From the NCBI GenBank assembly GCA_946415315.1, contig CAMKRZ010000008.1, positions 29,791-93,790 of the forward strand: 64,000 bases of DNA, given 5' to 3'. This DNA comes from an uncultured Lachnoclostridium sp. Its GTDB lineage: Bacteria; Bacillota; Clostridia; Lachnospirales; Lachnospiraceae. Shown here in pieces: positions 1-18,040 of this stretch. Position numbers and translations under genes: made by a program. How positions within the stretch are numbered: the stretch's first letter is position 1; each line of letters begins with the position of its first letter. A model generated the notes under the pieces. The model did no database searches. It was not told where the DNA came from and saw only the letters and a list, made by a program, of their open reading frames with translations.

Positions 1-2734
1 ATCCGGTCTTCGTGGGCTTGTCTGTACGTAAAAGAAGATTTTTACCATATGTTTTCGTCTGGGCAGATGGCGGATTTGTTCCGCCGTTAGCATTGTAAGT
101 CACCTCGTACGTCAACGGTTTCCAGACAGCTACCAACTCGAGTTTTGCATTATCTTTATATGTATCTCCCGGGTTGTATTTGACTACACCCTCTTTTCCC
201 TTTACAGCCCAACCCTGGAAGGTATACCCCGTCTTCTTGGGTTTATCTTTACTCAACTGCAGTTTCTGCCCGTAAGTCTTTTTCTGTGGCGACGGCGCAC
301 CTGTTCCGCCATTTGCTTCATACGTTACTTTGTAAGTCGGAAGCGGCGTCACCGTAGGCGTTGGTGTCTTCGTCGGCGTCGGTGTCGGTGTCTTCGTCGG
401 CTTCGGTGTCGGTGTCTTCGTCGGCTTCGGTGTCGGTGTACTCGTCGGTCTTGGCGTAGGCGTACTCGTCGGCTTAGGCGAAGGTGTAGGCGAAGGTGTC
501 GGCGTGTTCGTCGGCTTAGGCGAAGGTGTAGGCGAAGGTGTCGGTGAAGGTGTCGGTGAAGGTGTAGGCGAAGGCGTAGGTGTCGCTTGGACTTCTACCC
601 AGCGCGCATACAAATACAACACATCACCCCCGTCATCCGGTGCTGTAACTTTACTATTCTTCGTTGTCGGATCCGAAGCATTATCAAGGAACCACCCGGC
701 GAATCTGAAGCCTTCTTTTACGGGATCCACAAGTTCCGTTCCATATGTCTGACCGTAAGTCACCGTTATTCTTACCGTGGAGATTGAACCTCCTGCAGGA
801 TCAAGATAAACGGTATAAGTCTTCGCCTCCCATTGTGCGTACAGGTCGTGATCCTTCTGGATCGTGACTTTCGTTTCCTCGTTAACCGGCGTTCCGTTCG
901 ATGCTTTTGTTGCCCATCCGATAAAGTTGTGTCCTTCCCGCTCCGGTTTCGGCAGCGTTCCGACTATCGCTCCATACGGCTCGTTGTAATGAACGAGGAT
1001 TGTCCGTTTAGCATCCTCGAGTTCGTTTCCGCCGTTGGCATTCAGCGTTACCTTATACTCTTTCTTGCCGGTACTCAACGTAAGGGTAACGGTACTTCCT
1101 TTCTTCTGCATTCCTTCGCTACCCGGAGACTGTTTGACAACGCAATCTTTCGGAATGGTTTCGTTGGAAATCGGATCCTCATATTGAACATCAAAGCCGT
1201 TCTTGAGAAGTGCCTGTTCCGCCTTGGACTTTTCCATCCCAACAACATCAGGAACATCTACATAATCGTTCCCGGCTGAAACTATCAAGGTTACCTTTTC
1301 GCCCTTGGCAAGCTCCGTCCCGAATTTCGGATCGGTCCTGATCACACAGTTAAACTCTATTGTGTTATCGTGTTGAAAAACAAAATCAAATGTCAATCCC
1401 GCAGCTTCAATCAACGACTTGGCATCTTCTACATTAGTCCCCGGATCTATCCTCGGAACCGCGATCATCTCAATTGTGGGAGTCGGACTCAGCGTAGAAG
1501 TCGGCGTGCTTGTCGGCGTAGGGGTCAACGTGGCGGTTGGAGCAATCGTTGGCGTCGGTTTGTTCTCCTCTGATTCACGATTCTTGCTTGCCCAGAGAAT
1601 TCCTCCCCCAATCAGCAAGCAAAGTAAAATGATCAACGCCGCCCAAAAAGCCTTTCTCTTCCATAACTTCGTCTTCTTCAGCGGTACGATCACACCCTTG
1701 TTCGTAGCGTCGAGTAACGCATCCTTGAATTCCTTAGCAGTTGCATACCGATCCTCCGGCTTATATTCACAAGCCTTCAAAATCGCGCTGCCAATCGCAT
1801 ACGAAGCCTCACACGGTGCCGGAAGACGTTCCCCGTTGATCCGTTTCTTCCAGGCCTCCTCGCGCTCCACCGGCGTCACCAGTTTCTTCTCCGCATTTAC
1901 AAGCGGAAGGCGATTGTTGTTCAGCATGCGATACAAAACAATACCGAGAGAATAGACATCAACTCGTGAGTCGTATTTTTCGCCCTTTACTACTTCCGGT
2001 GCCATATAATTCGGTGAACCTTTGTATGACGCTGTAACTGTCTGTTCCAGCTTTCGGGAAATTCCAAAGTCACCGAGTTTGTAGTCGCCGAAACTGTTGA
2101 TGAAAATGTTTTCCGGCTTGATATCCCGATGAATGATCTGCTTTTCCTCACACATCATGAGGGCATTACACATATCACAGCCGAGTTTTACAATCTCTTT
2201 CTCGCTCAGCTTTTTGTCTGACATATATGTAATAAGCGGCGTAAGCAACTCCATACGGATGTAAACATCCCAGCCGAAGCCTTCCGTATGTTCAACAATC
2301 TTATAATCCTCTATCAGTACGATATTGTTAGCGCCCTTGAGGTTCTGCAAAATCTGAATCTCATTCTTCAGATCCTCAACGACACTGGTATAGTAAGACT
2401 TGGTTGCATCGTCATCCAATCCTTCCGACTGCAGCGACTCCCTCTCAGAATCATCCCTGGGAATGGAAATGATCTTGATAGCCGCATAACTCTCTATACC
2501 GCCTTCCTCACGGACAGCACGATAAACCGTACCGAACGAGCCCTTCCCGATTGGCTTCTCGTCCATCTTCCATTCCGGCCAGACAGAGTGTTTTTTCCCG
2601 TAATTACCCGGGGAATTCGGTCCTTCCGGAATTTTAGCTACTGTTGGCAACTCAGTACCGCAAGCCGGACATACTCCAAGATACGGATCCTCAGTTTCAA
2701 AATTACACTCCGGATTTAAACACTTACGCCTCAT
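1..2734 (-). CDS. Ser/Thr protein kinase: N-terminal Cys motif, kinase domain, TM, Thr/Pro spacer, two PASTA-like domains, InlB B-repeat-like domains; C-terminus truncated by window edge
   Basis: Read by eye on minus strand from ATG at 2734 ([12 protein letters not shown]...CPACG...); [92 protein letters not shown] signature; repeated 'VTYNANGG...GYTFxGW' units. Not in the ORF track because it runs off the edge. Confidence 0.9.
340..590 (-). repeat. Degenerate tandem repeat encoding a Thr/Pro/Ser/Lys-rich spacer ([26 protein letters not shown])
   Basis: Repeated 'gtcggtgtcttcgtcggc' / 'ggcgaaggtgta' units visible on the plus strand. Confidence 0.85.
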
Positions 2735-2815
2735 AACACTATCGCACTGAAACAGTGCTACCTCCTTCGCGGATTTCTACAAACGATTTTTCCCGAATCT
2801 TTTTCCTATAGCAAT

Positions 2816-4102
2816 TCATCGATAGGACATTTCCCAAACATCTGCGTAGGTTCCCATTGGATCCTCCGAAACCATACACATCATTACGAAACATTCGTAC
2901 GGGTTCGTCACATACATTTTTCCCATATGACAGCGATCCAGGATCTCGTTGGTCCCATCGCAAAATGACAGGAACCGTTGTTTTCGATCCGGATACCGAT
3001 CCATCATTTGAGAGAAGATGAAGAAGTTCAATGTAATCAGGTCATAGCGGTTCACTTCATCGCTTCCCGCAAGAATCCGCCCGATATGCTGTCTGCTGAA
3101 CCGTTTTCCGGAGAACTGCGCGTTCAGTTTTGATTTCTTCTCCGGAGAAAGATTGCCATGGCGATCAAGTGGAATCGCCGAACAGATCACATGCTCAATA
3201 TCACTCTCCGTGACATCTTCCGCTGTAAACTGTTTGCGACGATCCTTCATGGTCTGCAGTCTCTCGGCAATTTCATAGTCATACAACCGACCGCTGTCTT
3301 CCAGCTTGCTCTTGTATTCTGCAACCTGCTGTTTCATCTCCTCTTCCGAACTCTCGTTAAACCAGTTCGCCACGATTTCTTTAGCCTTGCTGTACAATAC
3401 ATCGAACTGCTCCCTGGCAGACACGCTCATCAGCGATGCATTATCCGCATTCTTCAGTTTGACCATCCGGATCAGAAGAGCCATATCACTTACTGCCGTG
3501 TTGTTTCCCCCGCCGGCATGAATACTGCTGTTTCCAAAACTTTCCAGTGCTCTCAGATCATCCTTCGTAAGCTTGTTGTATTGTTCCCAGAGCTGGCTGA
3601 ACTTGTCATAACTGAAACCGTGCTCATAGCAATACCAGCATGCCAGTTCAAAAGGATCCTGCGAATTAATGCTTTCCTCTCCAAGCGCTTTTGTCAGGAA
3701 CTGGTTGACCTCCTCCGGAGTCATTTTAAGTCCGAAGCCAAGCAGGAAAACAACTCTGCGGCGTACCGTGAGCTGCGTCAGCCAGTTTTTTGCCTGCGCT
3801 CGAAGTTTCACCGTGCTTGAGGAAAATGATGCCGGCGTATGGTTGTCCCGAAATGCCAGTACAAGTATTTCCTGAAAATCTGACAGAGGAATATCCCGAA
3901 ACCTCTCCTGCATTTCCGCTTTCACATATATGTATCGCTTCAGATAATCGCAAAACGGGATCATTCGCAGCGTACGCTTGAGAGTACGATAGATCAGTTC
4001 CGCATCATACTCTTCGAATTTGCTGTCATCTACAGTATCATAGAAAGATTCCCATGCAGCTATCGTAAAATCAATTGTTCTTGATTTCGCATCCATGTCC
4101 AT
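2816..4102 (-). CDS. Uncharacterised 428-aa protein in kinase/phosphatase island
   Basis: Provided ORF; short gaps to neighbouring minus-strand genes; no family recognised. Confidence 0.8.
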   Translation of the reverse strand: MDMDAKSRTIDFTIAAWESFYDTVDDSKFEEYDAELIYRTLKRTLRMIPFCDYLKRYIYVKAEMQERFRDIPLSDFQEILVLAFRDNHTPASFSSSTVKLRAQAKNWLTQLTVRRRVVFLLGFGLKMTPEEVNQFLTKALGEESINSQDPFELACWYCYEHGFSYDKFSQLWEQYNKLTKDDLRALESFGNSSIHAGGGNNTAVSDMALLIRMVKLKNADNASLMSVSAREQFDVLYSKAKEIVANWFNESSEEEMKQQVAEYKSKLEDSGRLYDYEIAERLQTMKDRRKQFTAEDVTESDIEHVICSAIPLDRHGNLSPEKKSKLNAQFSGKRFSRQHIGRILAGSDEVNRYDLITLNFFIFSQMMDRYPDRKQRFLSFCDGTNEILDRCHMGKMYVTNPYECFVMMCMVSEDPMGTYADVWEMSYR

Positions 4103-4121
4103 ATGTCACCCCCGGGAACAA

Positions 4122-4892
4122 TCAGAATATTTCACGTAATCTTGATAATCCACTGCGCCTTACCAGAAGAACCAGTGCCGTCACGTTATCCCTTCCTCCG
4201 GCTTCCAAAGCTCTCCGAACCAGTTCATCTGCTACTGTCTCAATATCGAACGTGCACAATACTTCCGCAATCTCATCCTCAGGCAGCATGTCCGTCAATC
4301 CGTCAGAGCAGATCAAGAAGCAGTCTTCCGCCCCGCACCGTCCACTGGCTTCATAGGGTTCGATTATCCCCTCTCCTTCTTTCTGACCCAGTTTCTGAGA
4401 CAACGGAGCCTTCCGATACTTCGTTCCCGTGAAAATATGGTCGAGCGAAATCTGTTGCAATTTATCTTCTTCCACGCGATAAACCCTGCTGTCACCGATA
4501 TTGCACACGTAGTATTTTCCCTTGCGAAACACCAGCATTGCCGCTGTTGTTCCCATCGCATCAATAAAATGATCATCTGCGTACCGGCAGATCATTTTAT
4601 TCACAATATCACAGTATTCCGCCAACGATTTCTCAACGTCATCGGATATATCCCACTGTCCGGCAGTCCGGGCAGCGATCCAGGATGCCAGTTCGCCGTG
4701 CTCTTCTCCCCCAAGCCCGTCAAACACTCCGAAAACTGCCTGCGATTCTTCCTCAATCATCCCGTTACAGCGGCTTACAGACTCATTCAGATTGACATCC
4801 CGGCATTCACCCGCGCAAGTGAAATTGTCCTGGTTGATGCTTCTTAATCGTCCGGTGTCACAAGTGCAACTGTAGTAAATTTTCACGCCCAT
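4122..4892 (-). CDS. PP2C-family Ser/Thr protein phosphatase
   Basis: SINQDNF, FGVFDGLGGEEHGE, VCNIGDSRVYR, LICSDGLTDML, GGRDNVTALVL motifs. Confidence 0.95.
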   Translation of the reverse strand: MGVKIYYSCTCDTGRLRSINQDNFTCAGECRDVNLNESVSRCNGMIEEESQAVFGVFDGLGGEEHGELASWIAARTAGQWDISDDVEKSLAEYCDIVNKMICRYADDHFIDAMGTTAAMLVFRKGKYYVCNIGDSRVYRVEEDKLQQISLDHIFTGTKYRKAPLSQKLGQKEGEGIIEPYEASGRCGAEDCFLICSDGLTDMLPEDEIAEVLCTFDIETVADELVRRALEAGGRDNVTALVLLVRRSGLSRLREIF

Positions 4893-5001: not shown

Positions 5002-5835
5002 CTATCGTTTACTGTAATCGTACATCTTGGAATAGTATGCCTGGCGGAACGAATAGCTCTTATACTTTTCCTTCACGTATTGTATATAATTTGCTTTCGA
5101 ATCGCACTGTTTCCATATGTATCGCTCGTCCGAACGACCTTCCACAGTGTACGTTTCATATGTGTCCCCGTACTTTGCCTTCGCTGCGGAAAATGTGTTA
5201 TCCGGAACTTTCGCGGAATCAACATTGTAACAATAATATACCTCAATCAGCAGCTGATTCTGCAGCACGCACTGGAATTCGTTCTCACCGGTGCGAATCG
5301 TGCAACTCTGCATAGAATGATCGTCTTCCGATTCTGCCAGCGGAGTTACCGCAGAACTGCCGAACAGTTTCTTCAGCTCATCATAGGTCTTTCCGAACAG
5401 GCTTGTATCCATCTGAAAGAAACCGGTTTTGGAATCCACGCGGAGATACGATGATCCCTTTTTGAAGACACCGCACAGATAGAGCACCAATCCCAGTACC
5501 AGCGCTGCCAGCAGGCATATGCCTGCCACAAGCAATCGCTTCTTTCCGCGCTTCGTCTTTCCCCGATACCGAACGGTTTTCTTTCCGTCAACCGGATCGG
5601 CATCTCCAGATTCCGGATTATCCGCCCCGTTTTCCTCATTGCTTCTCGTAAAATGTCTCGCGTACGAAGCAACCTGCTTCGAGTGAGTTACGGAACCATC
5701 CGTCGCATCATCAGCCTCATCCTTATCTGTATGACGGCCGGGAAACATCCTGACTGTTCCCATTCTGGATCCGCATATCGGGCATATCTCAATCCGATCA
5801 TCTTCAATTTCATTATCGCAAAATGGGCAAATCAT
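5002..5835 (-). CDS. Zinc-ribbon membrane protein without kinase domain; C-terminal domain of unknown function
   Basis: MICPFCDNEIEDDRIEICPICGSRMGTVRM ribbon as in adjacent kinases; basic stretch then TM (LLVAGICLLAALVLGLVLYLCGVF). Confidence 0.8.
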   Translation of the reverse strand: MICPFCDNEIEDDRIEICPICGSRMGTVRMFPGRHTDKDEADDATDGSVTHSKQVASYARHFTRSNEENGADNPESGDADPVDGKKTVRYRGKTKRGKKRLLVAGICLLAALVLGLVLYLCGVFKKGSSYLRVDSKTGFFQMDTSLFGKTYDELKKLFGSSAVTPLAESEDDHSMQSCTIRTGENEFQCVLQNQLLIEVYYCYNVDSAKVPDNTFSAAKAKYGDTYETYTVEGRSDERYIWKQCDSKANYIQYVKEKYKSYSFRQAYYSKMYDYSKR

Positions 5836-5894: not shown

Positions 5895-7976
5895 CTAATC
5901 CTTTGTAAGTAGATCATCTGTAATCAATACCGCCGTTTTACCGTATTGAACATTAATAGTCAAAACTTCCACACCATCCACATCAAATTCAACTACTCTG
6001 TCCCGGGTATTAGTGAATACATACTCTCCCACAACCTTGACCCCATCGATTAAAAACGTAACATATGATGAACCGTCAAAAGCTGTTCTCGGATTAATTA
6101 CACAAGAAAAATGTTTATATTCTCCATCCAGCATATAGCTAACTTTTTTCCCCGTAGGAATCACTATTGCTTTTTCGTGTTTTCTTCCAGCTGCGTCTAT
6201 TGCAATCACCGGAGAAGTTACATACCCTTCCGACTTCAGATCGCTTAAGTTCATATTTGAACTGTTTCTATCCTTGGCAGTTAGATGGTATAGTAATATA
6301 ATCATCCCGATCAAAAATGCTGCCCCGATTACGATCCAAATCCGTTTTCGCGGAAGTCTCTTTCTTATTGTTGTAACAATACCTGACGCCGCGATTGCCT
6401 GTTTCAAGCTTCTCATCCGTTTACGCAAGGCATTTACTTTAGACTTTGTCTCATGCTCTGTTTCTGACTGTGTTTCCTGCTTCGCTTCTGGCTGTGCTTC
6501 CGGCTCCGCTTTCGGGTTTATTTCCTGCTTTATGTCATTTGGGGTTTCCCCTTTTATTTTCTTCTTTGTTTCTTTCCTCTTCTCTCGGCTCTTTTTTACC
6601 GCTTTTTCCTCATTATCATCAATTCCCCGCAACGCTTCTAACATTTCACGCGCTGTTCCGTACCGGTCTTCCCTCTTGAACGCGCAAGCTTTCAAGATAA
6701 CCCGTGCTGCTTCGGCAGACGCTTCACATGGCTTTGGAAAAGGATCTCCTGATACTCTCCGCTTCCACGCCTTCTCGCGCTCACTCGGAGAAGTCGATGA
6801 TTTCTGTGTATCAACGAACGGAAGTCGCTTGTTATTCAGAAACCGGTACAGCATCACACCAAGCGAATAAATATCAACACGCGAGTCGTATTCCTCTCCT
6901 TTGAATACCTCCGGTGCCATATAATTCGGAGATCCTTTGTACGACGCTACGACTGTGTGTTCAAGCTTACGCGCCACGCCGAAGTCGCCCAGTTTGAAAT
7001 CGCCGAATTCATTGACAAAAATGTTCTCCGGCTTGACATCGCGATGAATAATTTTTTTCTTCTCGCAAACCTCAAGTGCCTCACAGATGTCGCAACCGAG
7101 CCTGATTACCTCCTGCTCCGTCATTTTCCGGTCTCCGAGGTACATGTTCAGCGGAGTCAGCAATTCCATTCGAATGTTGATATCCCACCCCTGTCGGTCT
7201 GTTCTCTCAATGATCCTGTAGTCCTCGATTCCTACAACATTCTTCGCACTTTTCAACGATTGAAGGATTCGGATTTCATCCGCAAAATCCTTCACAATAT
7301 TATAAAAATATGTTCTCGTTCCTTCGTCGTCATATCCTTCTGCACGAACGGATTCCCACTCCGCCTCGTTTGCAGGAATTGAAATCACCTTGATTGCGGA
7401 GTATGTCCGGATATCGAAATCTTCACGCACTGCACGGTATACCGTTCCATAGGATCCTCGTCCGATTGGCTTCTTCTCAAGTTTCCACTCTGACCAAACA
7501 GAATCTATGAACTCAGGTAACTCATCTACCACCGCTTCATCGAGATTCACCTCGATGTTTTCTGCTGTATTCTCTGAATTTGTCTCACTGTTTTGATCTA
7601 CAACCGCAGGGTTTGTCTCAAAGGTTCTCACCGTATCAGCAAAGTTCGTACTCTCTTTGTAGGAAGTTACCGTTTCCGATCCTTCTTCTACGACAGACGC
7701 TTCATTCAGGAGTTCTTCTGCCGGAACTACGGCTTCCGAAGAAACTTCTTCCGACATCTTGTTCGCTTCTTCGTGTGCTTTTATGTCTTCCGTCCCTTTT
7801 ACATGCCCATCTGTTTCGTGACCGTTTGATTCCGCTTTTTCGCAACCATCTTCCTTCTCATTGCTTTTCGGAAAATTACGAATAAGCCGAACCGTCCCCA
7901 TCACAGACCCGCAAACAGGGCATATTTCGGTGCTATCATCCGGGATTTCGTTTTCACAAAAAGGGCATAATTTCAT
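5895..7976 (-). CDS. Zinc-ribbon Ser/Thr protein kinase with TM and NPCBM-like C-terminal domain
   Basis: [84 protein letters not shown]-terminal LSDLKSEGYVTSPVIAIDAAGRKHEKAIVI...LDGEYKHFS. Confidence 0.93.
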   Translation of the reverse strand: MKLCPFCENEIPDDSTEICPVCGSVMGTVRLIRNFPKSNEKEDGCEKAESNGHETDGHVKGTEDIKAHEEANKMSEEVSSEAVVPAEELLNEASVVEEGSETVTSYKESTNFADTVRTFETNPAVVDQNSETNSENTAENIEVNLDEAVVDELPEFIDSVWSEWKLEKKPIGRGSYGTVYRAVREDFDIRTYSAIKVISIPANEAEWESVRAEGYDDEGTRTYFYNIVKDFADEIRILQSLKSAKNVVGIEDYRIIERTDRQGWDINIRMELLTPLNMYLGDRKMTEQEVIRLGCDICEALEVCEKKKIIHRDVKPENIFVNEFGDFKLGDFGVARKLEHTVVASYKGSPNYMAPEVFKGEEYDSRVDIYSLGVMLYRFLNNKRLPFVDTQKSSTSPSEREKAWKRRVSGDPFPKPCEASAEAARVILKACAFKREDRYGTAREMLEALRGIDDNEEKAVKKSREKRKETKKKIKGETPNDIKQEINPKAEPEAQPEAKQETQSETEHETKSKVNALRKRMRSLKQAIAASGIVTTIRKRLPRKRIWIVIGAAFLIGMIILLYHLTAKDRNSSNMNLSDLKSEGYVTSPVIAIDAAGRKHEKAIVIPTGKKVSYMLDGEYKHFSCVINPRTAFDGSSYVTFLIDGVKVVGEYVFTNTRDRVVEFDVDGVEVLTINVQYGKTAVLITDDLLTKD

Positions 7977-7995: not shown

Positions 7996-9240
7996 TTACA
8001 TTCGTTCCGTTTCCGTTATGTCGGGATCAAGGTCTGTTTTAGTCATTGTCTGTTTCGGCCAAAAGATGCATAACAGAACACAAACCATGACATCCGACAG
8101 AATAAAGAAAAGTAGCGGGGCAGATAATACTACACATAACAAAGCACATATCGCAGCAGCTATTATCCCTCCGAAAATGAGCATTATTTTCTTGTAGAAC
8201 TCCCACCTTCTGGTTTTCTCAATTTCTTTCTTATACTCGTTTGCGTCAGTTTTCTGATTTTTTACTTGTTCCAGAGTTGTCGCCGCAATGTGCATTCCTG
8301 CTATCAACGCTTCACGCATCTCCCCGGCCGTCTCATAACGGTCTTCCGGCATAAACGCACACGCTTTCAATACAGCCTGCGCGACTTCTTCTGATGCGTC
8401 GCAAGGTTTCGGGAACGGTTTTCCGTGCATTCGTAACTTCCAAGAATTCTCACGATCACTCGGAGTCAACAATTCCTTATACGGATCCAAAAAAGGAAGT
8501 CGGTTATTGTTCAGGAATCGATACAACATCACGCCAAGGGAGTAGATATCCACGCGGGCATCGTATGCCTCACCATTATAGACTTCCGGTGCCATATAAT
8601 TCGGTGACCCCTTATATGACGCAACTATGGTATGTTCGAGTTTACGAGCCACACCGAAATCACCCAGTTTGAAATCACCAAACTCATTAAGGAAAATGTT
8701 CTCCGGTTTGATATCTCGATGGATGATTTTTTTCTTCTCGCATACTTCCAACGCTTCGCAGATATCGCAGCCAAGTTTTACAATCTCTTTCTCCGTCATG
8801 TTGTGGTCACAGAGATAGCTGTTCAGCGGAGTCAACAATTCCATTCGGATATAAATGTCCCAGCCGATCCGGTCAGTCCGTTCAACGATCTTGTAATCCT
8901 CAATACCGACAACATTTTTCGCACTTTTCAAAGACTGCAGGATACGGATCTCTCCGACAAAATCCTGCACGATGTTCTCAAAATACGAACGTGTCCTTTC
9001 TTCGGTAAATCCTTCCGCGCGTATGGAATCCAATTCCGTCTCGTTTGCAGGGATTGAGATTACTTTAATTGCGGAATATGTCTTGATCCCAAAATCCTCT
9101 CGCACGGCGCGATAAACCGTCCCATATGAACCACGTCCGATTGGCTTCTTCTCAAGTTTCCATTCCGGCCAAACGGAATCGCGCAGTTCCGAAACATCAG
9201 CGTCAGTTTTTTCAGTCGATTTTGAAGAATTCTCAGACAT
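7996..9240 (-). CDS. Ser/Thr protein kinase with C-terminal TM segments; separated from its zinc ribbon by an in-frame stop
   Basis: [33 protein letters not shown]; hydrophobic C-terminus; same frame as 9277..9465 ORF. Confidence 0.9.
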   Translation of the reverse strand: MSENSSKSTEKTDADVSELRDSVWPEWKLEKKPIGRGSYGTVYRAVREDFGIKTYSAIKVISIPANETELDSIRAEGFTEERTRSYFENIVQDFVGEIRILQSLKSAKNVVGIEDYKIVERTDRIGWDIYIRMELLTPLNSYLCDHNMTEKEIVKLGCDICEALEVCEKKKIIHRDIKPENIFLNEFGDFKLGDFGVARKLEHTIVASYKGSPNYMAPEVYNGEAYDARVDIYSLGVMLYRFLNNNRLPFLDPYKELLTPSDRENSWKLRMHGKPFPKPCDASEEVAQAVLKACAFMPEDRYETAGEMREALIAGMHIAATTLEQVKNQKTDANEYKKEIEKTRRWEFYKKIMLIFGGIIAAAICALLCVVLSAPLLFFILSDVMVCVLLCIFWPKQTMTKTDLDPDITETERM

Positions 9241-9276
9241 TAAACTATCCGAGTCAGAAGCCTCAACCTTTTTGCT

Positions 9277-9465
9277 TTACGAACCAGAATCACAAGCTAT
9301 TAAAACGTCCGAATCAGAAGTTGTGTTTTCAATTGTTTTCTCATTATCACAGGAACCTTTTTTCGATTCATAAACCAAGCGAACTGTACCCATCTGATCT
9401 CCGCAAAAAGGGCATACGGAAACGTCTTCATTGTTACTTTCCCTACCGCAACTCGGACATATCAT
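9277..9465 (-). pseudogene. Zinc-ribbon ORF in the same frame as the downstream kinase; likely N-terminal part of a nonsense-interrupted kinase gene
   Basis: MICPSCGRESNNEDVSVCPFCGDQMGTVRLV; TAA (complement of 9277-9279) is the only stop between the ribbon and kinase ORFs; 12 sense codons separate it from the ATG at 9240. Confidence 0.65.
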
Positions 9466-9661: not shown

Positions 9662-11440
9662 TTACTTTATAGTCATTGTTACTGTGTTTGAAACCACCTT
9701 GTTCCCGTGAGCATCCTTCACAACGCAGCGCCACTTATATGAGCTTCGCTCAGTCCGTATCTTTGTTTCCAGCACTGATGTTGTTGCACTTGGCGCTTCG
9801 ACATTAATCCATGCACTTTCTCCCGGTTTTTGGTATTGCCACTGATAAGTAAACGGACCTTCACCATCAACTTTAATTGTAAAAGTTACCTCTGTATATT
9901 TCGGACCTGAAACACTCTTGGGCTGTTGTGTAATAACCAACGACTTCGCTGTCGGTGTCGGTGTGTTCGTCGGTGTCGGTGTGTTCGTCGGTGTCGGTGT
10001 GTTCGTCGGCGTCGGCGTGTTCGGTGCTTTCGTCGGCGCATTCGTCGGCGCATTCGTCGGCGTCGGTTTCGGTGTGTTCGTCGGTTTTGGCGTGTTCGTT
10101 GGCATCGGCGTGTTCGTCGGCATCGGCGTGTTCGTCGGCTTATGAGCCGGCGTATCCGTCGGTACCGGCGTGCTTGTCGCCTTTGTTTCCGAATTGGAAT
10201 CGCTATCTTCCGATGACTTTCCGAACAATATGATGCACACAACTATCGCTGCGATTAACAGCGCAATTCCTGCCAGGATCAGCCACAGTTTTTTCCTGCT
10301 CTTCCCTTCCTTAAGCGGTGCGGGAGGTGTTGCAACAACACCGGCTGCAACTTTGTTATTGCTCGCAAGAAGCGCCGCGCGCATCTCACTTGCCGTCGCA
10401 TAACGGTCTTCCCGTTTAAATGCGCATGCTTTCAACACTGCCTGTGCGACGCCGTCCGAAGCATTGCACGGCTTCGGGAACGGTTCTCCCTGCATTCTCA
10501 ACTTCCAGGAATTTTCCCGATCGCTTGGCGTCAAAATTGCCTTATATGGATCCAGGAAAGGCAGGCGGTTATTATTCAGGAAGCGATACAGCATAACACC
10601 GAGGGAATAGATGTCCACACGGGCATCGTATGCCTCACCGTTGAAGACTTCCGGCGCCATATAGTTCGGTGACCCCTTATATGACGCTGCCACGGTATGT
10701 TCGAGTTTACGAGCCACACCGAAGTCCCCCAACTTGAAATCGCCGAACTCATTGATGAAAATGTTCTCCGGTTTGATGTCCCTGTGAATAATGTTCTTCT
10801 TCTCGCAGACTTCCAACGCTTCGCAGATATCGCAGCCAAGTTTGACAGTCTCCGCCTCCGTCATTTTGCGATCGCAAAGATAGGTATTCAGCGGGGTAAG
10901 GAGTTCCATTCGGATATAGATGTCCCAACCGATCCGGTCGGTTCGTTCGACAATCTTGTAATCCTCAATCCCGACAATGTTCTTCGCACTTTTCAGGGTT
11001 TGCAGGATACGGATCTCTCCTGCGAAATCCTGCACGATGTTCTCAAAATACGAGCGCGTGCCTTCTTCACTGAGTCCTTCCGCACGAACAGAATCCAGTT
11101 CTGTTTCATTAGCAGGGATTGAGATCACCTTGATTGCGGAAAATGTCCTGATCCCGAAATCCTCTCGCACCGCACGATAAACCGTTCCATACGAACCACG
11201 TCCGATCGGCTTCCTCTCCAATTTCCACTCCGGCCAGACGGAATCCAACAATTCCGGAGACAGGGAAACCGGATCTGCAGTCGTAGAATGAGCGGAAGTA
11301 TCATTCAATAACTTCTCCACGTTATCTGCTCCTTGAAATGATTCGGACAACATCCGTACAGTTCCCAGGGAATAGCCGCAAAACGGGCAGTTCACTGAGC
11401 GCTCATCACTGATTTCTTTTCCGCAATTCGTACATTTCAT
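9662..11440 (-). CDS. Zinc-ribbon Ser/Thr protein kinase with TM, TPTNTP spacer and Ig-like C-terminal domain
   Basis: [28 protein letters not shown]; kinase motifs; [25 protein letters not shown]-terminal [23 protein letters not shown]...[12 protein letters not shown]. Confidence 0.93.
9950..10150 (-). repeat. Tandem repeat encoding TPTNTP/APTNAP spacer in the kinase
   Basis: Repeated 'gtgttcgtcggtgtcggt' units. Confidence 0.85.
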
Positions 11441-11485: not shown

Positions 11486-12250
11486 TCAGAAGAACAGGAA
11501 TCTCGGTTTATCCTTCTTTATCTCCAGCAAAATCAATGTGGTATTGTCCCTGCCTCCCTTGGCAAGCGCCTGTTTCAACATTTTCCGAGACGCCTTCTTC
11601 ACGCTTTTCTCGACTGCGATCGCCTGAATCTCCGGTTCGCTCAGCATGTCAGTGACTCCGTCTGAACAGATCAGATAGCGCTCTCCGACCTTACAGCGAA
11701 GCTTTACTATGTACGGCTCTATCACAAATTCTTCTTTGGGAATTCCGAGGCATTGTGACAGCGGCGGCTTCCGTCCATGCGCACAGGGCGCGACATGATC
11801 CTTGGAAATCTGTTCAATGGACTGTCCGCTTATTCGGAAAATTCTGCTGTCGCCCAGGTTGCATACATACAGCCGGTCCCCCTGAAACGCTAACATCGCA
11901 ACCGTTGTTCCCGTGGACTGGAGTTGCTCCTTCTTCGCAAAATCGCAGATTTCCTCATTAGCCGCAATGCAGAAATCATACAACTGGGTCTTCAGATTTC
12001 CCTTCCACTCCGTATGCGATGCACGTTTGGCAGCAAGAAACGATGACTCCTCGCCGCGCTGCTCTCCGCCAAGACCATCAAAAACCCCGAACACGCTGCA
12101 CTTCCTTGCGGAAACTTCGCCCGTCAAAGGATACACCTTCGTGTCCTTTCCGTTATAGCGATACATACGCTCACAGGTGTAATTGTCCTGATTCATTTTC
12201 CGTATTCTGCCGACATGACAGACACATGCATAAGCTATCTTTGTTCCCAT
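11486..12250 (-). CDS. PP2C-family Ser/Thr protein phosphatase (second copy)
   Basis: KMNQDNY, FGVFDGLGGEQRGE, VCNLGDSRIFR, LICSDGVTDML, GGRDNTTLILL. Confidence 0.95.
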   Translation of the reverse strand: MGTKIAYACVCHVGRIRKMNQDNYTCERMYRYNGKDTKVYPLTGEVSARKCSVFGVFDGLGGEQRGEESSFLAAKRASHTEWKGNLKTQLYDFCIAANEEICDFAKKEQLQSTGTTVAMLAFQGDRLYVCNLGDSRIFRISGQSIEQISKDHVAPCAHGRKPPLSQCLGIPKEEFVIEPYIVKLRCKVGERYLICSDGVTDMLSEPEIQAIAVEKSVKKASRKMLKQALAKGGRDNTTLILLEIKKDKPRFLFF

Positions 12251-12305: not shown

Positions 12306-13682
12306 TTATTCCACCGACTTCAGCAAGATCACCACATACGAGGTATTGCCCTTTAATCCTTCCGCATAGTCATCTGCTTTTACTGTTTCTCCGTGGATTC
12401 TCTTCGATGGAGAAAATGTGACTTTCTTCACGTTTGAAAAGGACAGCGTTAACTCTGTAGCAGGTACCGAGGAATCGAACGTATTCCTGTAATACTCGGC
12501 AGAGACAAGGACCCAGACTTTTCCGCCGGAAGCTGTCTCGCAACTGCAGGCATAGTACGTGTAGGTACGTGAAATATTCTGGTAAATGCCGTATTCCGGC
12601 ACGATTGAAGTCACGTCAAGATACACCGGTTCCCCTGCCGTCATGCCGATCGCATACTCCACCTCCGGTTTCGGCGTAGGTGTGTTTGTCGCTGTCGGCG
12701 CAGTCGTAGGCGTTGATTTCGTCGAGGACTTTTGGGAATTCCTGCGATCCTTCGAAATAGTAGACAAGACGGAAACAATCACAAAGAAAACCAATACGCC
12801 CAATATGGTGAACAGACAACCTTTTCTGAGCGTTCCGGATTGATTGTTCTGACTGTTCTGAACATTCTGAAAATTCTGAGTGGCCGGTGCTTTCAGTTCC
12901 AGCTGAATCCACTCGCTTTTCAACTGTGCTCCGACAGTCGGCAGGTCTCCGAACTCAATCATCAGAATCTTTGCCATGTAAGCGGCATTTGCTGCTTGTC
13001 CTTTTGCATTATGCAGATTGACAACAGCGTTTCTTACCATCGTGCACAATGTCATTCTCGCATTCGTGCGTTTTTCGGTATCTTCGTACGACGTTCTCAA
13101 ACGGTCGTCAAAGACCTGTACGATCTTCATGTATTGCCGGAGCCCCGTGAGATCACTCGTAACCAACTGCTCTGTCTGCTCACGGATCACGTTCAGTCCG
13201 GCGTTCACTTCTTCATCTGTCATCCCGTTCAGAAATCCGTCCATGGATGTATTATACATGCTGACAGATTGATATATGTAATCAAATTGTTCCTTCGATC
13301 CGGAAGCTTTTTCGATCTTCTCTGCGATGACCGGATTCGTCTTGCGAATGTGCTCCAGCATGTCCTTATCAGGATATTCGCGATACAGGCGGACAGCCAG
13401 TTCAGGATCGCGAGCAATCCTGTCCCAATAACCGTTTTCGACCAGAAACGCCTTCCAACTCCTGTCATTCTCTCCCTTGCTTACTTTTTGTGCAAACATA
13501 GAAAAAAGAAAAGCAAACACAAGACACCCTACACCGAACAGAACCTCCGCTAATTTATCGTCACTGTTACCGAAAATGCAGTTCACAATAAGTGTAACAC
13601 CGATTACCATCGAAACTGACCCCAACACGCTCAACAACGTCGCTGTACTGGAATTCTTATACACCGTCGTGTTCACTCTCAT
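12306..13682 (-). CDS. Membrane protein of unknown function with N-terminal and central TM segments and Thr/Pro spacer; first gene of the kinase island
   Basis: TM stretches near N-terminus and 'GCLFTILGVLVFFVIVSVLS'; TPTTAPTATNTPTPKPE spacer. Confidence 0.8.
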   Translation of the reverse strand: MRVNTTVYKNSSTATLLSVLGSVSMVIGVTLIVNCIFGNSDDKLAEVLFGVGCLVFAFLFSMFAQKVSKGENDRSWKAFLVENGYWDRIARDPELAVRLYREYPDKDMLEHIRKTNPVIAEKIEKASGSKEQFDYIYQSVSMYNTSMDGFLNGMTDEEVNAGLNVIREQTEQLVTSDLTGLRQYMKIVQVFDDRLRTSYEDTEKRTNARMTLCTMVRNAVVNLHNAKGQAANAAYMAKILMIEFGDLPTVGAQLKSEWIQLELKAPATQNFQNVQNSQNNQSGTLRKGCLFTILGVLVFFVIVSVLSTISKDRRNSQKSSTKSTPTTAPTATNTPTPKPEVEYAIGMTAGEPVYLDVTSIVPEYGIYQNISRTYTYYACSCETASGGKVWVLVSAEYYRNTFDSSVPATELTLSFSNVKKVTFSPSKRIHGETVKADDYAEGLKGNTSYVVILLKSVE

Positions 13683-14157
13683 GATGCCGTTCCCCTCTCG
13701 TCTTCTTAAGCAGGACTATTCAACCGGAAAGTTGCCCTTGTCACGGGTTCAGATGCTGTTCGAATAATGCGATTTTTCACATTTTCTTCACATATCTAAA
13801 TTTTATCTAAAACAATTTGCTATGTCAAACATAATATATCTATACATATACAGTATTCTAAAGGTTATTCCGTTTATTATGTCTTTTTTTGCATTATTGT
13901 AATGTTTCTTGGCAATTCCGTTCTCGTCGGTGCCCGCTTTATACAAATACTTATTCCCTTAATGCTTCATCTGTTGATCTTCTCAAACACATCCTCAACA
14001 AATATAAAAGTTTGCAATTACATTCGTCGATTGTCACCTTTATCTTGCTTTTTTTCTGCTGTGCACATATCATAATAACTGTGTTGTACCGAGATCAATC
14101 GGATATCGGATTACTTAAACGAAAAATCAAACACGGACGCGATCGGGAGGTAAAACG

Positions 14158-15243
14158 ATGAAAACTACCAAGATTGTAATTACAGGCGGCCCGTGTGCCG
14201 GAAAATCCACCGCCATGAGCTGGGTGCAGAATGCCTTTACACAGATGGGCTATACCGTGCTTTTCATCCCGGAAACAGCAACGGAACTGATTTCCGGCGG
14301 TGTCGCGCCGTGGACATGCGGGAGCAACCTGGATTTCCAAAAGTGTCAGCTTCGTCTGCAACTTGACAAAGAAGATGTCTTTACGCAGGCTGCGAAAACC
14401 ATGAATGCTTCTAAAGTATTGATCGTCTGCGACCGTGGACTGCTTGATAACAAGGCATACATGAACGATTTTGAGTTTTCACAGGTGCTGGAGTATCTGA
14501 ACAGCAATGAAGTTACGCTTCGGGACAACTACGATGCAGTGTTTCATCTTGTCACAGCGGCAAAAGGCGCCGAAGGATTTTATACAACTGCCAACAACTC
14601 CGCCAGAACAGAGACCATCGAGGAAGCAGCCGCACTCGATGATAAGCTGATCAGCGCTTGGACAGGCCATCCGCACCTCAGAGTAATCGATAATTCTACC
14701 AACTTCGAGGATAAGATGAGGCGACTGATTTCCGAGATTTCGTCCTTCCTCGGAGAACCGGAACCGTACGAGATCGAACGCAAATTCCTGGTCGAGTATC
14801 CGGATGTCCGTTGGCTTTGCTCGATTCCGAACTGTCAGCGGATTGAAATCATACAGACATACCTGAAATCCGGTCCGGACGAGGAAGTGCGTGTACGCCA
14901 GCGCGGTATGGACGGCCACTACATTTACTTTCAGACAACCAAACGTCGGATCAGCGATGTAAAACGCGTGGAGATCGAACGCCGGCTATCGGAGCAGGAA
15001 TACCTGCATCTTCTTATGGATGCCGATACGAATTATCGCCAGATTCGGAAAGACCGCTATTGCCTGACGTTTGACAATCAGTATTTTGAGATCGATATTT
15101 ACCCGTTCTGGACCGATAAAGCTATCGTTGAGATCGAACTGAACGACGAAAACGAAGAGATCCGTTTTCCCGAACAGCTTAAGGTAATCAAAGAGGTTAC
15201 CAAGGATGAATCCTACACAAACAGGGCTTTAGCTCGAATATAA
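14158..15243 (+). CDS. NadR/Ttd14-like P-loop NTPase fused to CYTH-like domain
   Basis: KIVITGGPCAGKST Walker A; CDRGLLDNKAYM; C-terminal PYEIERKFLVEYPD...EVRVRQRG...KRVEIERRLSEQEY CYTH signature. Confidence 0.88.
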   Translation: MKTTKIVITGGPCAGKSTAMSWVQNAFTQMGYTVLFIPETATELISGGVAPWTCGSNLDFQKCQLRLQLDKEDVFTQAAKTMNASKVLIVCDRGLLDNKAYMNDFEFSQVLEYLNSNEVTLRDNYDAVFHLVTAAKGAEGFYTTANNSARTETIEEAAALDDKLISAWTGHPHLRVIDNSTNFEDKMRRLISEISSFLGEPEPYEIERKFLVEYPDVRWLCSIPNCQRIEIIQTYLKSGPDEEVRVRQRGMDGHYIYFQTTKRRISDVKRVEIERRLSEQEYLHLLMDADTNYRQIRKDRYCLTFDNQYFEIDIYPFWTDKAIVEIELNDENEEIRFPEQLKVIKEVTKDESYTNRALARI

Positions 15244-15260
15244 CCGTAAATGCGACACAA

Positions 15261-15298
15261 AAAACAGACCTCCGGGCGTTTTCCCGAAGGTCTGTTTT
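15261..15298. terminator. Bidirectional rho-independent terminator between convergent CYTH gene and galM
   Basis: aaaacagacctccggg / cccgaaggtctgtttt stem. Confidence 0.85.
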
Positions 15299-15362
15299 AA
15301 TACTGATCATTTCAAAATGTCTTGTCCGAACGGACCTGTTGTTGCCTCTTGCGCCAGCCTGC

Positions 15363-16457
15363 TTACTGCTCCTCCTCTTCCTCCACGGAGAACGAGTACA
15401 CCGTGCAATAATCGAAAGCTTCATCCTCACGGAAAATGCAGGTCGGGAAGGTCGGAATGTTGCAGGAGTTCGGATAGAACTGCGTCTCGAAGCAGACACC
15501 GTCGCGCTTCTTGTAGATCACGCCGCCCTTGCCGGGGTTCGGATCCTTCGAGCCGTCGATAAAGTTGCCGCTGTAGAGCTGCATGCCGGGAAGATCGGTG
15601 TAGACTTCCATCTTGCGGCCGCTCTTCGGATCGTAGAGGATTGCCACAAGGTCCATCTCGTCCTCCTCATCGATGTCGAGGTCGAGCACATAGTTGTGGT
15701 CGTAACCGCCGGCAATCTTGAGGCACTCCATGTCCGCGTTGATGTCGCGGCCGATCGGCTTCGGCTCCTGGAAATCCATCGCCGTTCCGGTGATGTCCAT
15801 GATCTCGCCGGTCGGGATCAGAAGCTTGTCGGTAGGCGTGATCTGGTGGCTGTTGATCCAGACTTCCTGGTCAAGCACGGAACCGCTCGCCTGGCCGGCA
15901 AGGTTGAAATACGTGTGGTTGGTCAGGTTGATGACCGTAGCCTTGTCGCAGTCTGCAAAATACTCGATCGCGAGGTCATTGTCGTTCGTGAGCGTGTAGG
16001 TCACGGTGACATTGAGGTTGCCGGGGAATCCCTGCTCGCCGTCCGGCGACAGACGCGAAAGCTCGACGCTCACGCACTCGTCATCCTCGTATGTCTCTGC
16101 CTCGTAGAACACCTTGTTGTAGCCGAGAGGGCCACTGTGAAGGTTGTTCACGCCGTTATCATTTTTCGCAAGCTCGTAGGTCTTGCCGTCGATCGTGAAC
16201 TGTGCTCCGCCGATGCGGTTTGCATGGCGGCCGATGAACGAGCCGTATCCGGGGCCGTTGGTCTCATAGCCCGTCACGTTGTCGTAGCCAAGCGCCACAT
16301 CCTCGAAATTGCCGTTCCGGTCCGGAACGATAATGTTGACGATCACGGCGCCGAAGTCCGACACCGTCACCTTCATGCCGTTCTTGTTCTCCAGCGTATA
16401 CAGGGTGGCTTCTTTTCCATCCTTGGTCTTTCCGAAACTAGATTTGCTGATACCCAT
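15363..16457 (-). CDS. galM: Aldose 1-epimerase
   Basis: GRHANRIGGAQFTIDGKTYEL, NNLHSGPLGYNKV, NLTNHTYFNLAG. Confidence 0.93.
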   Translation of the reverse strand: MGISKSSFGKTKDGKEATLYTLENKNGMKVTVSDFGAVIVNIIVPDRNGNFEDVALGYDNVTGYETNGPGYGSFIGRHANRIGGAQFTIDGKTYELAKNDNGVNNLHSGPLGYNKVFYEAETYEDDECVSVELSRLSPDGEQGFPGNLNVTVTYTLTNDNDLAIEYFADCDKATVINLTNHTYFNLAGQASGSVLDQEVWINSHQITPTDKLLIPTGEIMDITGTAMDFQEPKPIGRDINADMECLKIAGGYDHNYVLDLDIDEEDEMDLVAILYDPKSGRKMEVYTDLPGMQLYSGNFIDGSKDPNPGKGGVIYKKRDGVCFETQFYPNSCNIPTFPTCIFREDEAFDYCTVYSFSVEEEEEQ

Positions 16458-16634
16458 TCTGATATTCTCCTTTTTGTATTTCTGAGCCGCCCGGTACTCC
16501 CTCGCGACTCTTCGCGTCTCCGCATTGGTTTTACTCTTTTGTCAACGCGCACTCGATTTCCGTTGCGCCCCTTCTCTGACATTTTACATCATAGCAAATT
16601 CGCAACGGTTTGTCACGAAAGAATCATCCGAAAC

Positions 16635-16673
16635 AGAAAAAAGCATCGGAAAATGATTTCTTCTCCGATGCTT
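16635..16673 (-). terminator. Rho-independent terminator downstream of hisS
   Basis: aagcatcgga / tccgatgctt stem; T-run on minus strand. Confidence 0.75.
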
Positions 16674-16723
16674 CTCTGAAAAACTCGTCTTTCACTGCGG
16701 ATATTCCGTCAAAACGATTCCTC

Positions 16724-18040
16724 TTATCTCACGGCATCCGCAAGCTCCGCGACCGCAACCGCGCGCTGCTCGCCGGTCGCCATGTCCTTGAGCATCACGG
16801 TTCCCTGTGCCGCCTCATCCTCGCCGATGATGGCCGCGTACGGGACACCGATCTTCGCGGCATACTTCATTTTCTGCTTCATGCCCTTGCTCTGGCAGTA
16901 CACGTCCGCGTTGATGCCCGCCCCGCGGATCGCCGAAGCGGCCGTGAGGGCCGGGCTGAGCTGTTCCGGTCCCATCGGGATCACAAGGCACCGTGCCAGG
17001 CATCCGTTCCCTGCCGGGATCAGTCTGTTCTCCTTAAGCTGGTAGAACAGTCTCGTCAGACCGATACTGATGCCGATGCCCGGAAGCTTCTGGTCCGTGT
17101 AGTACTCGGCTAGGTTGTCATAGCGCCCGCCGGAGCACACGCTGCCCATGCTCGGATAGTCGTTGAGCATCGTCTCAAACACCGTTCCGGTATAGTAATC
17201 GAGGCCTCTCGCGATCGTGAGGTCGATGATGAACGCGCTCTCCTCAACGCCGAACAGGCGAAGGTACGAAACCACCGTCGCCAGTTCCTCCACGCCCTGG
17301 CGGTACAGTTCGTTGTCGATCTCCTGCGCGCGGAGCGCTTCGATAACTTCATCGTTCGTGCCGCGGAACGCAAGGAACGTAAGGATCCTGTCCGCATCCT
17401 CGGTCTTCACGCCGAACTTCTCGAGTTCCTCCGTGACCGCGTCGCGGCCGATCTTCTCCAATTTGTCGATCGTGCGCAAAATGTCCCCGATGATCTCCGC
17501 ATACCCCAGTGCCGAAAAATACCCGTTCAGCACTTTGCGGTTGTTCATGCGGATCGTGAACGCGCCGAACGCAAGCTCCTTAAACACGTTGTAAATGACC
17601 GCCGGCATCTCCGCGTCGTACACGATATCCAGCGAGTCCTGTCCGATCACGTCGATGTCGCACTGGTAAAACTCGCGGAAACGCCCCTTCTGCGGACGCT
17701 CGCCGCGGAACACCTTGCTCATCTGGTAGCGCTTGAACGGGAATGTCAGCTCCCCTGCGTGCTGCGCCACATAGCGAGCCAGCGGCACCGTCAGGTCAAA
17801 GCGCAGAGCGACGTCGTTGTCGCCCTTCATAAAGCGGTAAATCTGCTTCTCGGTCTCGCCGCCCGCCTTCGCCAGCAGCACCTCCGAAAGCTCGATCGTC
17901 GCCGTGTCAAGCGGCAGGAAACCGTAGCGCTCGTACACGCTGCGGATCGTGTCATACATTTTGTTAAATGCGATCTGATCCTCCGGGAGCAGTTCCATGA
18001 ATCCCGGCATGATCTTCGGTTGTACTTTGTTCTTACTCAT
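16724..18040 (-). CDS. hisS: Histidyl-tRNA synthetase; start placed at MSKNKVQ
   Basis: LRFDLTVPLARYVAQH, FRGERPQKGRFREFYQCDIDVIG, GRYDNL, GISIGLTRL; ggagg upstream of ATG at 18040. Confidence 0.93.
   Translation of the reverse strand: MSKNKVQPKIMPGFMELLPEDQIAFNKMYDTIRSVYERYGFLPLDTATIELSEVLLAKAGGETEKQIYRFMKGDNDVALRFDLTVPLARYVAQHAGELTFPFKRYQMSKVFRGERPQKGRFREFYQCDIDVIGQDSLDIVYDAEMPAVIYNVFKELAFGAFTIRMNNRKVLNGYFSALGYAEIIGDILRTIDKLEKIGRDAVTEELEKFGVKTEDADRILTFLAFRGTNDEVIEALRAQEIDNELYRQGVEELATVVSYLRLFGVEESAFIIDLTIARGLDYYTGTVFETMLNDYPSMGSVCSGGRYDNLAEYYTDQKLPGIGISIGLTRLFYQLKENRLIPAGNGCLARCLVIPMGPEQLSPALTAASAIRGAGINADVYCQSKGMKQKMKYAAKIGVPYAAIIGEDEAAQGTVMLKDMATGEQRAVAVAELADAVR

What the first reader, a model, noticed from the sequence alone, without database searches (positions are those of the whole stretch)
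9238..9465. Kinase gene split from its zinc ribbon by a single in-frame TAA
The 62-aa ribbon ORF (9465 to 9277) and the kinase ORF (from 9240) are in the same frame. Reading through gives ...ACDSGS-[TAA][45 protein letters not shown], matching the ribbon-linker-kinase layout of the paralogs. No good ribosome-binding site precedes the ATG at 9240. Options: recent nonsense mutation, sequencing error, readthrough, or a functional split into a free ribbon plus a soluble-N-terminus kinase.
Basis: seen in the sequence. Interest (0 to 1): 0.6.

Follow-up and report, generated by a model that had tools for sequence, protein, structure and literature searches.

The report
Kinase gene broken by recent stop
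One of several near-duplicate signalling-kinase genes in a gut-type Lachnospiraceae bacterium carries a single stop codon in the floppy linker between its small zinc-binding tip and its kinase; all its closest relatives are unbroken, so this is most likely an ordinary, recent loss-type mutation (or an assembly/strain error) and not a new kind of gene arrangement.

Summary
On the minus strand a 62-codon zinc-ribbon ORF (9465-9277) ends in TAA (9279-9277). After 12 open codons in the same frame, ATG 9240 opens an intact 414-aa Ser/Thr kinase ORF (9240-7996). The six nearest kinases are all fused ribbon-linker-kinase: four in the same genome and two in a congener whose syntenic locus has no stop. 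A kinase tree nests the split copy inside this fused clade, as sister of the adjacent gene 11440-9662 (SH-aLRT 98). Fusion is therefore ancestral and the split derived. The kinase shows no relaxed selection, and the stop lies in a linker predicted to be disordered. ATG 9240 has no better Shine-Dalgarno match than random sequence and lies 36 nt past the stop. None of the 43 tRNA loci found gave a stop-reading anticodon. Best explanation: a recent, lineage-specific nonsense change (or a strain/assembly variant, not excludable without reads) that leaves a free ribbon and at most low kinase output by reinitiation. A conserved functional split and programmed readthrough are not supported. The wider family is mostly ribbon-less, so a kinase starting at ATG 9240 would have a normal architecture. 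Low interest.

The parts
9277..9465 (-). 62-aa ORF: zinc ribbon (CPSC...CPFC, GTVR motif) plus first part of acidic/Ser-rich linker, ends in TAA
   Evidence: start has strong SD GGGGAGG (-13.7 kcal/mol); weak zinc-ribbon-type Pfam hit below cut-off
9277..9279 (-). in-frame TAA that splits the gene
   Evidence: search reports '1 TAA' inside the 489-residue match
9241..9276 (-). 36 nt (12 open codons, SKKVEASDSDSL) between the stop and the next ATG
9238..9240 (-). only usable start (ATG) for the downstream kinase; no SD, start codon partly in an 8-bp hairpin
7996..9240 (-). 414-aa Ser/Thr kinase ORF (Pkinase E=5.5e-41) with hydrophobic, membrane-anchor-like C-terminus
9662..11440 (-). nearest paralogue: intact fused ribbon-linker-kinase-TM-ectodomain protein, 592 aa
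   Evidence: 90% identity in the kinase core, sister in tree
5895..7976 (-). second adjacent paralogue: intact fused ribbon-long linker-kinase, 693 aa
5002..5835 (-). ribbon fused to TM and extracytoplasmic part, without a kinase (277 aa)
11486..12250 (-). PP2C phosphatase of the same array; syntenic counterpart in congener G005

Best explanation
The locus is one copy of a tandem family of fused ribbon-linker-kinase membrane signalling genes. In this lineage (or in this assembled strain) a stop codon has recently arisen in the unstructured linker. The ribbon ORF is still translated from its strong ribosome-binding site and now yields a free 62-aa ribbon. The kinase is probably made little or not at all, by inefficient termination-reinitiation at ATG 9240, 36 nt downstream. 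Shown: the stop, the intact frame on both sides, the fused state of all nearest relatives, the nesting in the fused clade, the missing SD. Inferred: recency, low kinase output, redundancy with the adjacent paralogues.
For: Six nearest homologues are all fused: window 11440-9662, 7976-5895, the copy hit at ~2572 (full ORF L110 17524-13751), L110 12329-9702, and two in the congener G005. The G005 locus is syntenic. Tree: the split kinase is sister to 11440-9662 (SH-aLRT 98) inside a 7-row clade (99) otherwise all fused. Kinase codons show no relaxation: 21 non-synonymous/39 synonymous on the split branch against 22/49 on the paralogue branch, pairwise dN/dS about 0.08. In the fused paralogue, residues 26-63 have pLDDT < 50 between a folded ribbon and kinase. 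No SD at ATG 9240; start in a weak hairpin. [quoted passage not shown] coli (PMC7538156), and removing the SD lowered reinitiation by 60-90% in three E. coli gene pairs and was strictly required in a fourth (PMC6728339).
Against: Both halves still look constrained, so no decay is visible; that also fits a functional split or a base-call error. No second genome of the same species was available. The predicted loss of kinase output is not measured.
Confidence: 0.62

Rival explanations
1. Sequencing, assembly or strain-consensus error: the real gene has no stop here.
For: A 42-contig draft with no reads at hand. Both halves are free of further damage and constrained. Neighbouring paralogues (90% identity in the kinase core) could mislead an assembler.
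Against: The linker is the part least like the paralogues, so collapse or chimaera is unlikely there. No other SD-less, same-frame split of this type stood out in 479 kb of the same genome (13 pairs flagged, gaps 0-36 nt, most with an SD), although the filter also missed this case, so its power is limited.
Confidence: 0.2
2. Functional split: a free ribbon and a separately started, ribbon-less kinase, possibly translationally coupled.
For: Most of the wider kinase family has no ribbon and starts about 10-20 residues before the aligned kinase core, much like the ATG 9240 product (26 residues). A kinase-less ribbon protein exists next door (5835-5002). Kinase codons are constrained.
Against: No relative has a stop at this place; all nearest copies are fused. 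No SD and no promoter-like site for a separate start. The gap of 36 nt exceeds the optimum for coupling (PMC7538156).
Confidence: 0.14
3. Programmed or suppressor-mediated readthrough of TAA makes some full-length protein.
For: The frame is open on both sides.
Against: No stop anticodon was predicted at any of the 43 tRNA loci found in the genome. TAA ends 86 of 220 long ORFs. Nothing similar in the close relatives.
Confidence: 0.03

Closest known systems
Hanks-type Ser/Thr kinase with PP2C partner (PknB/Stk1-Stp1 type)
   Same: Kinase domain with all core motifs; hydrophobic C-terminal anchor; PP2C neighbours (Stp1/IreP model hit); some paralogues carry PASTA repeats.
   Different: N-terminal zinc ribbon in this clade; far below the PknB equivalog cut-off (120.8 of 450 bits); this copy lacks an extracellular domain.
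Nonsense-split genes with possible downstream restart
   Same: Single in-frame stop in the 5' part, intact downstream frame with an in-frame ATG.
   Different: Nothing that sets it apart; the restart site here is weak (no SD).

Membership tests
Hanks-type Ser/Thr protein kinase | Pkinase domain above the curated cut-off | tested here: met
   PF00069 141.1 bits against 31.7
Hanks-type Ser/Thr protein kinase | Glycine-rich loop, Lys, HRD, DFG and APE motifs | tested here: met
   [26 protein letters not shown] in the translation
PknB/Stk1 PASTA kinase (NF033483) | Score over the equivalog cut-off; PASTA repeats | tested here: not met
   120.8 bits against 450; no PASTA hit in this copy
MADS6/mad6 anti-phage kinase | Score over the equivalog cut-off | tested here: not met
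   102.4 bits against 460; the PADLOC mad6 hit reflects the shared kinase fold
Ribbon-linker-kinase fusion clade | Ribbon and kinase in one uninterrupted frame | tested here: not met
   TAA at 9279-9277, although the kinase nests in this clade
Functional split gene conserved by selection | Same stop plus independent start in relatives | tested here: not met
   All nearest relatives fused; no conspecific genome available
Stop-codon readthrough gene | Suppressor tRNA or conserved readthrough signal | tested here: not met
   No TTA/CTA/TCA anticodon predicted at the tRNA loci found; no close relative with the stop

The most novel reading that the evidence does not exclude
A domain-fusion gene caught while splitting: the ribbon becomes a free small protein that acts in trans on the kinases of the array, and the kinase is kept at low, coupled expression.
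Probability: 0.1. Interest if true: 0.4.

Novelty: new member of a known kind. Interest (0 to 1): 0.2.

Why it matters
Mostly as an annotation warning: automatic annotation would list a small ribbon protein and a ribbon-less kinase where the clade ancestor had one fused protein. If the stop is real, the locus is a natural test of whether the ribbon must be tethered to the kinase in these array-encoded kinases.

Tried and rejected
Conspecific or closer orthologue: searched the genus (22 genomes), 299 family genomes, GTDB species contigs and viral contigs; best relative outside this genome about 71-72% identical in the kinase. A 30-nt periodic self-similarity of the linker as trace of a tandem duplication: not significant against codon shuffles (P about 0.06). 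Defence-system reading: PADLOC hits are generic kinase-domain matches and NCBIfam MADS6 is far below its cut-off. Internal promoter for the kinase: none found on the minus strand. PMC4648390 concerns eukaryotic reinitiation and was not used; two literature searches found nothing on ribbon-fused kinases of this type.

Full report
OBSERVATION. The described arrangement is really there. The ribbon ORF runs 9465-9277 on the minus strand and ends in TAA. The same frame continues through 12 codons to ATG 9240 and on through a complete kinase to 7996. No other stop or frameshift lies between. The ribbon ATG has one of the best Shine-Dalgarno matches in the window (GGGGAGG, -13.7 kcal/mol). ATG 9240 has none (-3.3 kcal/mol; 48% of random positions do as well), and its U and G pair in a modest 8-bp hairpin. 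It is the only ATG/GTG/TTG between the stop and the kinase core.

WHAT THE RELATIVES SHOW. The own genome holds five close kinases of this type, counting this one, all in one array. The other four are intact fusions of ribbon, linker and kinase. One congeneric genome, G005, has the same neighbourhood (RelA/SpoT, MBL-fold hydrolase, HemZ-like, HD-domain protein, HisS, aldose epimerase, PP2C; these names other than PP2C are from reading the translations) followed by two kinases, both intact fusions. Among the other relatives from species genomes and family genomes, only one more ribbon fusion was seen (L041). The remaining 115 rows in the set (which include this split copy and some rows cut by contig ends) show no ribbon in the kinase frame, most starting shortly before the kinase core. 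In a tree of 130 kinase cores the split copy pairs with the adjacent gene 11440-9662 (SH-aLRT 98) inside a clade (99) that holds only the six fusions and itself. So the fused state is ancestral for this copy and the split is derived. No genome of the same species was available, so the age of the stop within the species is unknown.

SELECTION. The kinase of the split copy has not evolved faster than its sister. Polarised by 7976-5895, the split branch has 21 non-synonymous and 39 synonymous changes, the sister 22 and 49; pairwise dN 0.086, dS 1.04. The ribbon keeps all four cysteines and the GTVR motif. The stop is therefore young relative to the duplication, or the kinase is still made, or the stop is not real; these data do not separate the three.

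MECHANISM. An AlphaFold2 model of the fused sister (8 sequences, mean pLDDT 78.5) has a separately folded ribbon end and kinase joined by residues 26-63 with pLDDT below 50. The corresponding linker of the split copy holds the stop, so both halves could fold alone (inference). With no SD, and 36 nt beyond the stop, the kinase would depend on termination-reinitiation. In E. [quoted passage not shown] removing the SD cut reinitiation by 60-90% in three gene pairs and the SD was strictly essential in one (PMC6728339). Readthrough is unlikely: ARAGORN predicted no stop anticodon at the 43 tRNA loci found, and TAA ends 86 of 220 long ORFs. The likely outcome is a free ribbon and little or no kinase, tolerated because close paralogues flank it (inference).

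ERROR OR REAL. The genome is a 42-contig draft. A scan of 479 kb for same-frame neighbouring coding ORFs flagged 13 pairs, most with an SD and short gaps, i.e. ordinary operon neighbours. That gives no hint of widespread nonsense errors, but the filter did not flag the present case either, so the test is weak. Reads are needed.

CONTEXT. The array continues upstream of the window into a 1535-aa FHA plus FtsK/SpoIIIE ATPase and an Mbeg1-like protein. From knowledge of type VII secretion (EssC/YukB), this looks like a T7SSb-type locus with kinase, PP2C and FHA regulation. The remaining T7SS components were not identified in the 15 kb further upstream, and this was not followed further. The family assignment (Lachnospiraceae) rests on the named relatives and on one same-family genome, G133, whose contig has the length of a Lachnoanaerobaculum gingivalis record.

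VERDICT. Confirmed observation, ordinary explanation: most likely a recent nonsense change in one of several redundant paralogues, with an error or strain variant as the main rival.

Noticed in passing
L110:5047-9654 (-) (G000 contig C8, upstream of the window start): 1535-aa protein with FHA and FtsK/SpoIIIE domains, EssC/YukB-like, next to an Mbeg1-like protein (2441-4132) and the ribbon-kinase/PP2C array: looks like a type VII secretion locus tied to Ser/Thr phosphorylation.
   Followed up: partly
window 5002-5835 (-): Ribbon of the same type (CPFC...CPIC, GTVR) fused to a TM segment and extracytoplasmic part but no kinase: the ribbon is a shuffled module in this array.
   Followed up: partly
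L110:9702-12329, 13751-17524 (-) and L111:8973-12185 (+): Fused ribbon-kinases with large extracytoplasmic parts made of List_Bact_rpt (InlB-type) repeats, some with PASTA domains.
   Followed up: no
window 2816-4102 (-) and 12306-13682 (-): 428-aa and 458-aa proteins inside the kinase/phosphatase array without any Pfam or NCBIfam hit at E 0.01.
   Followed up: no
   Followed up: partly
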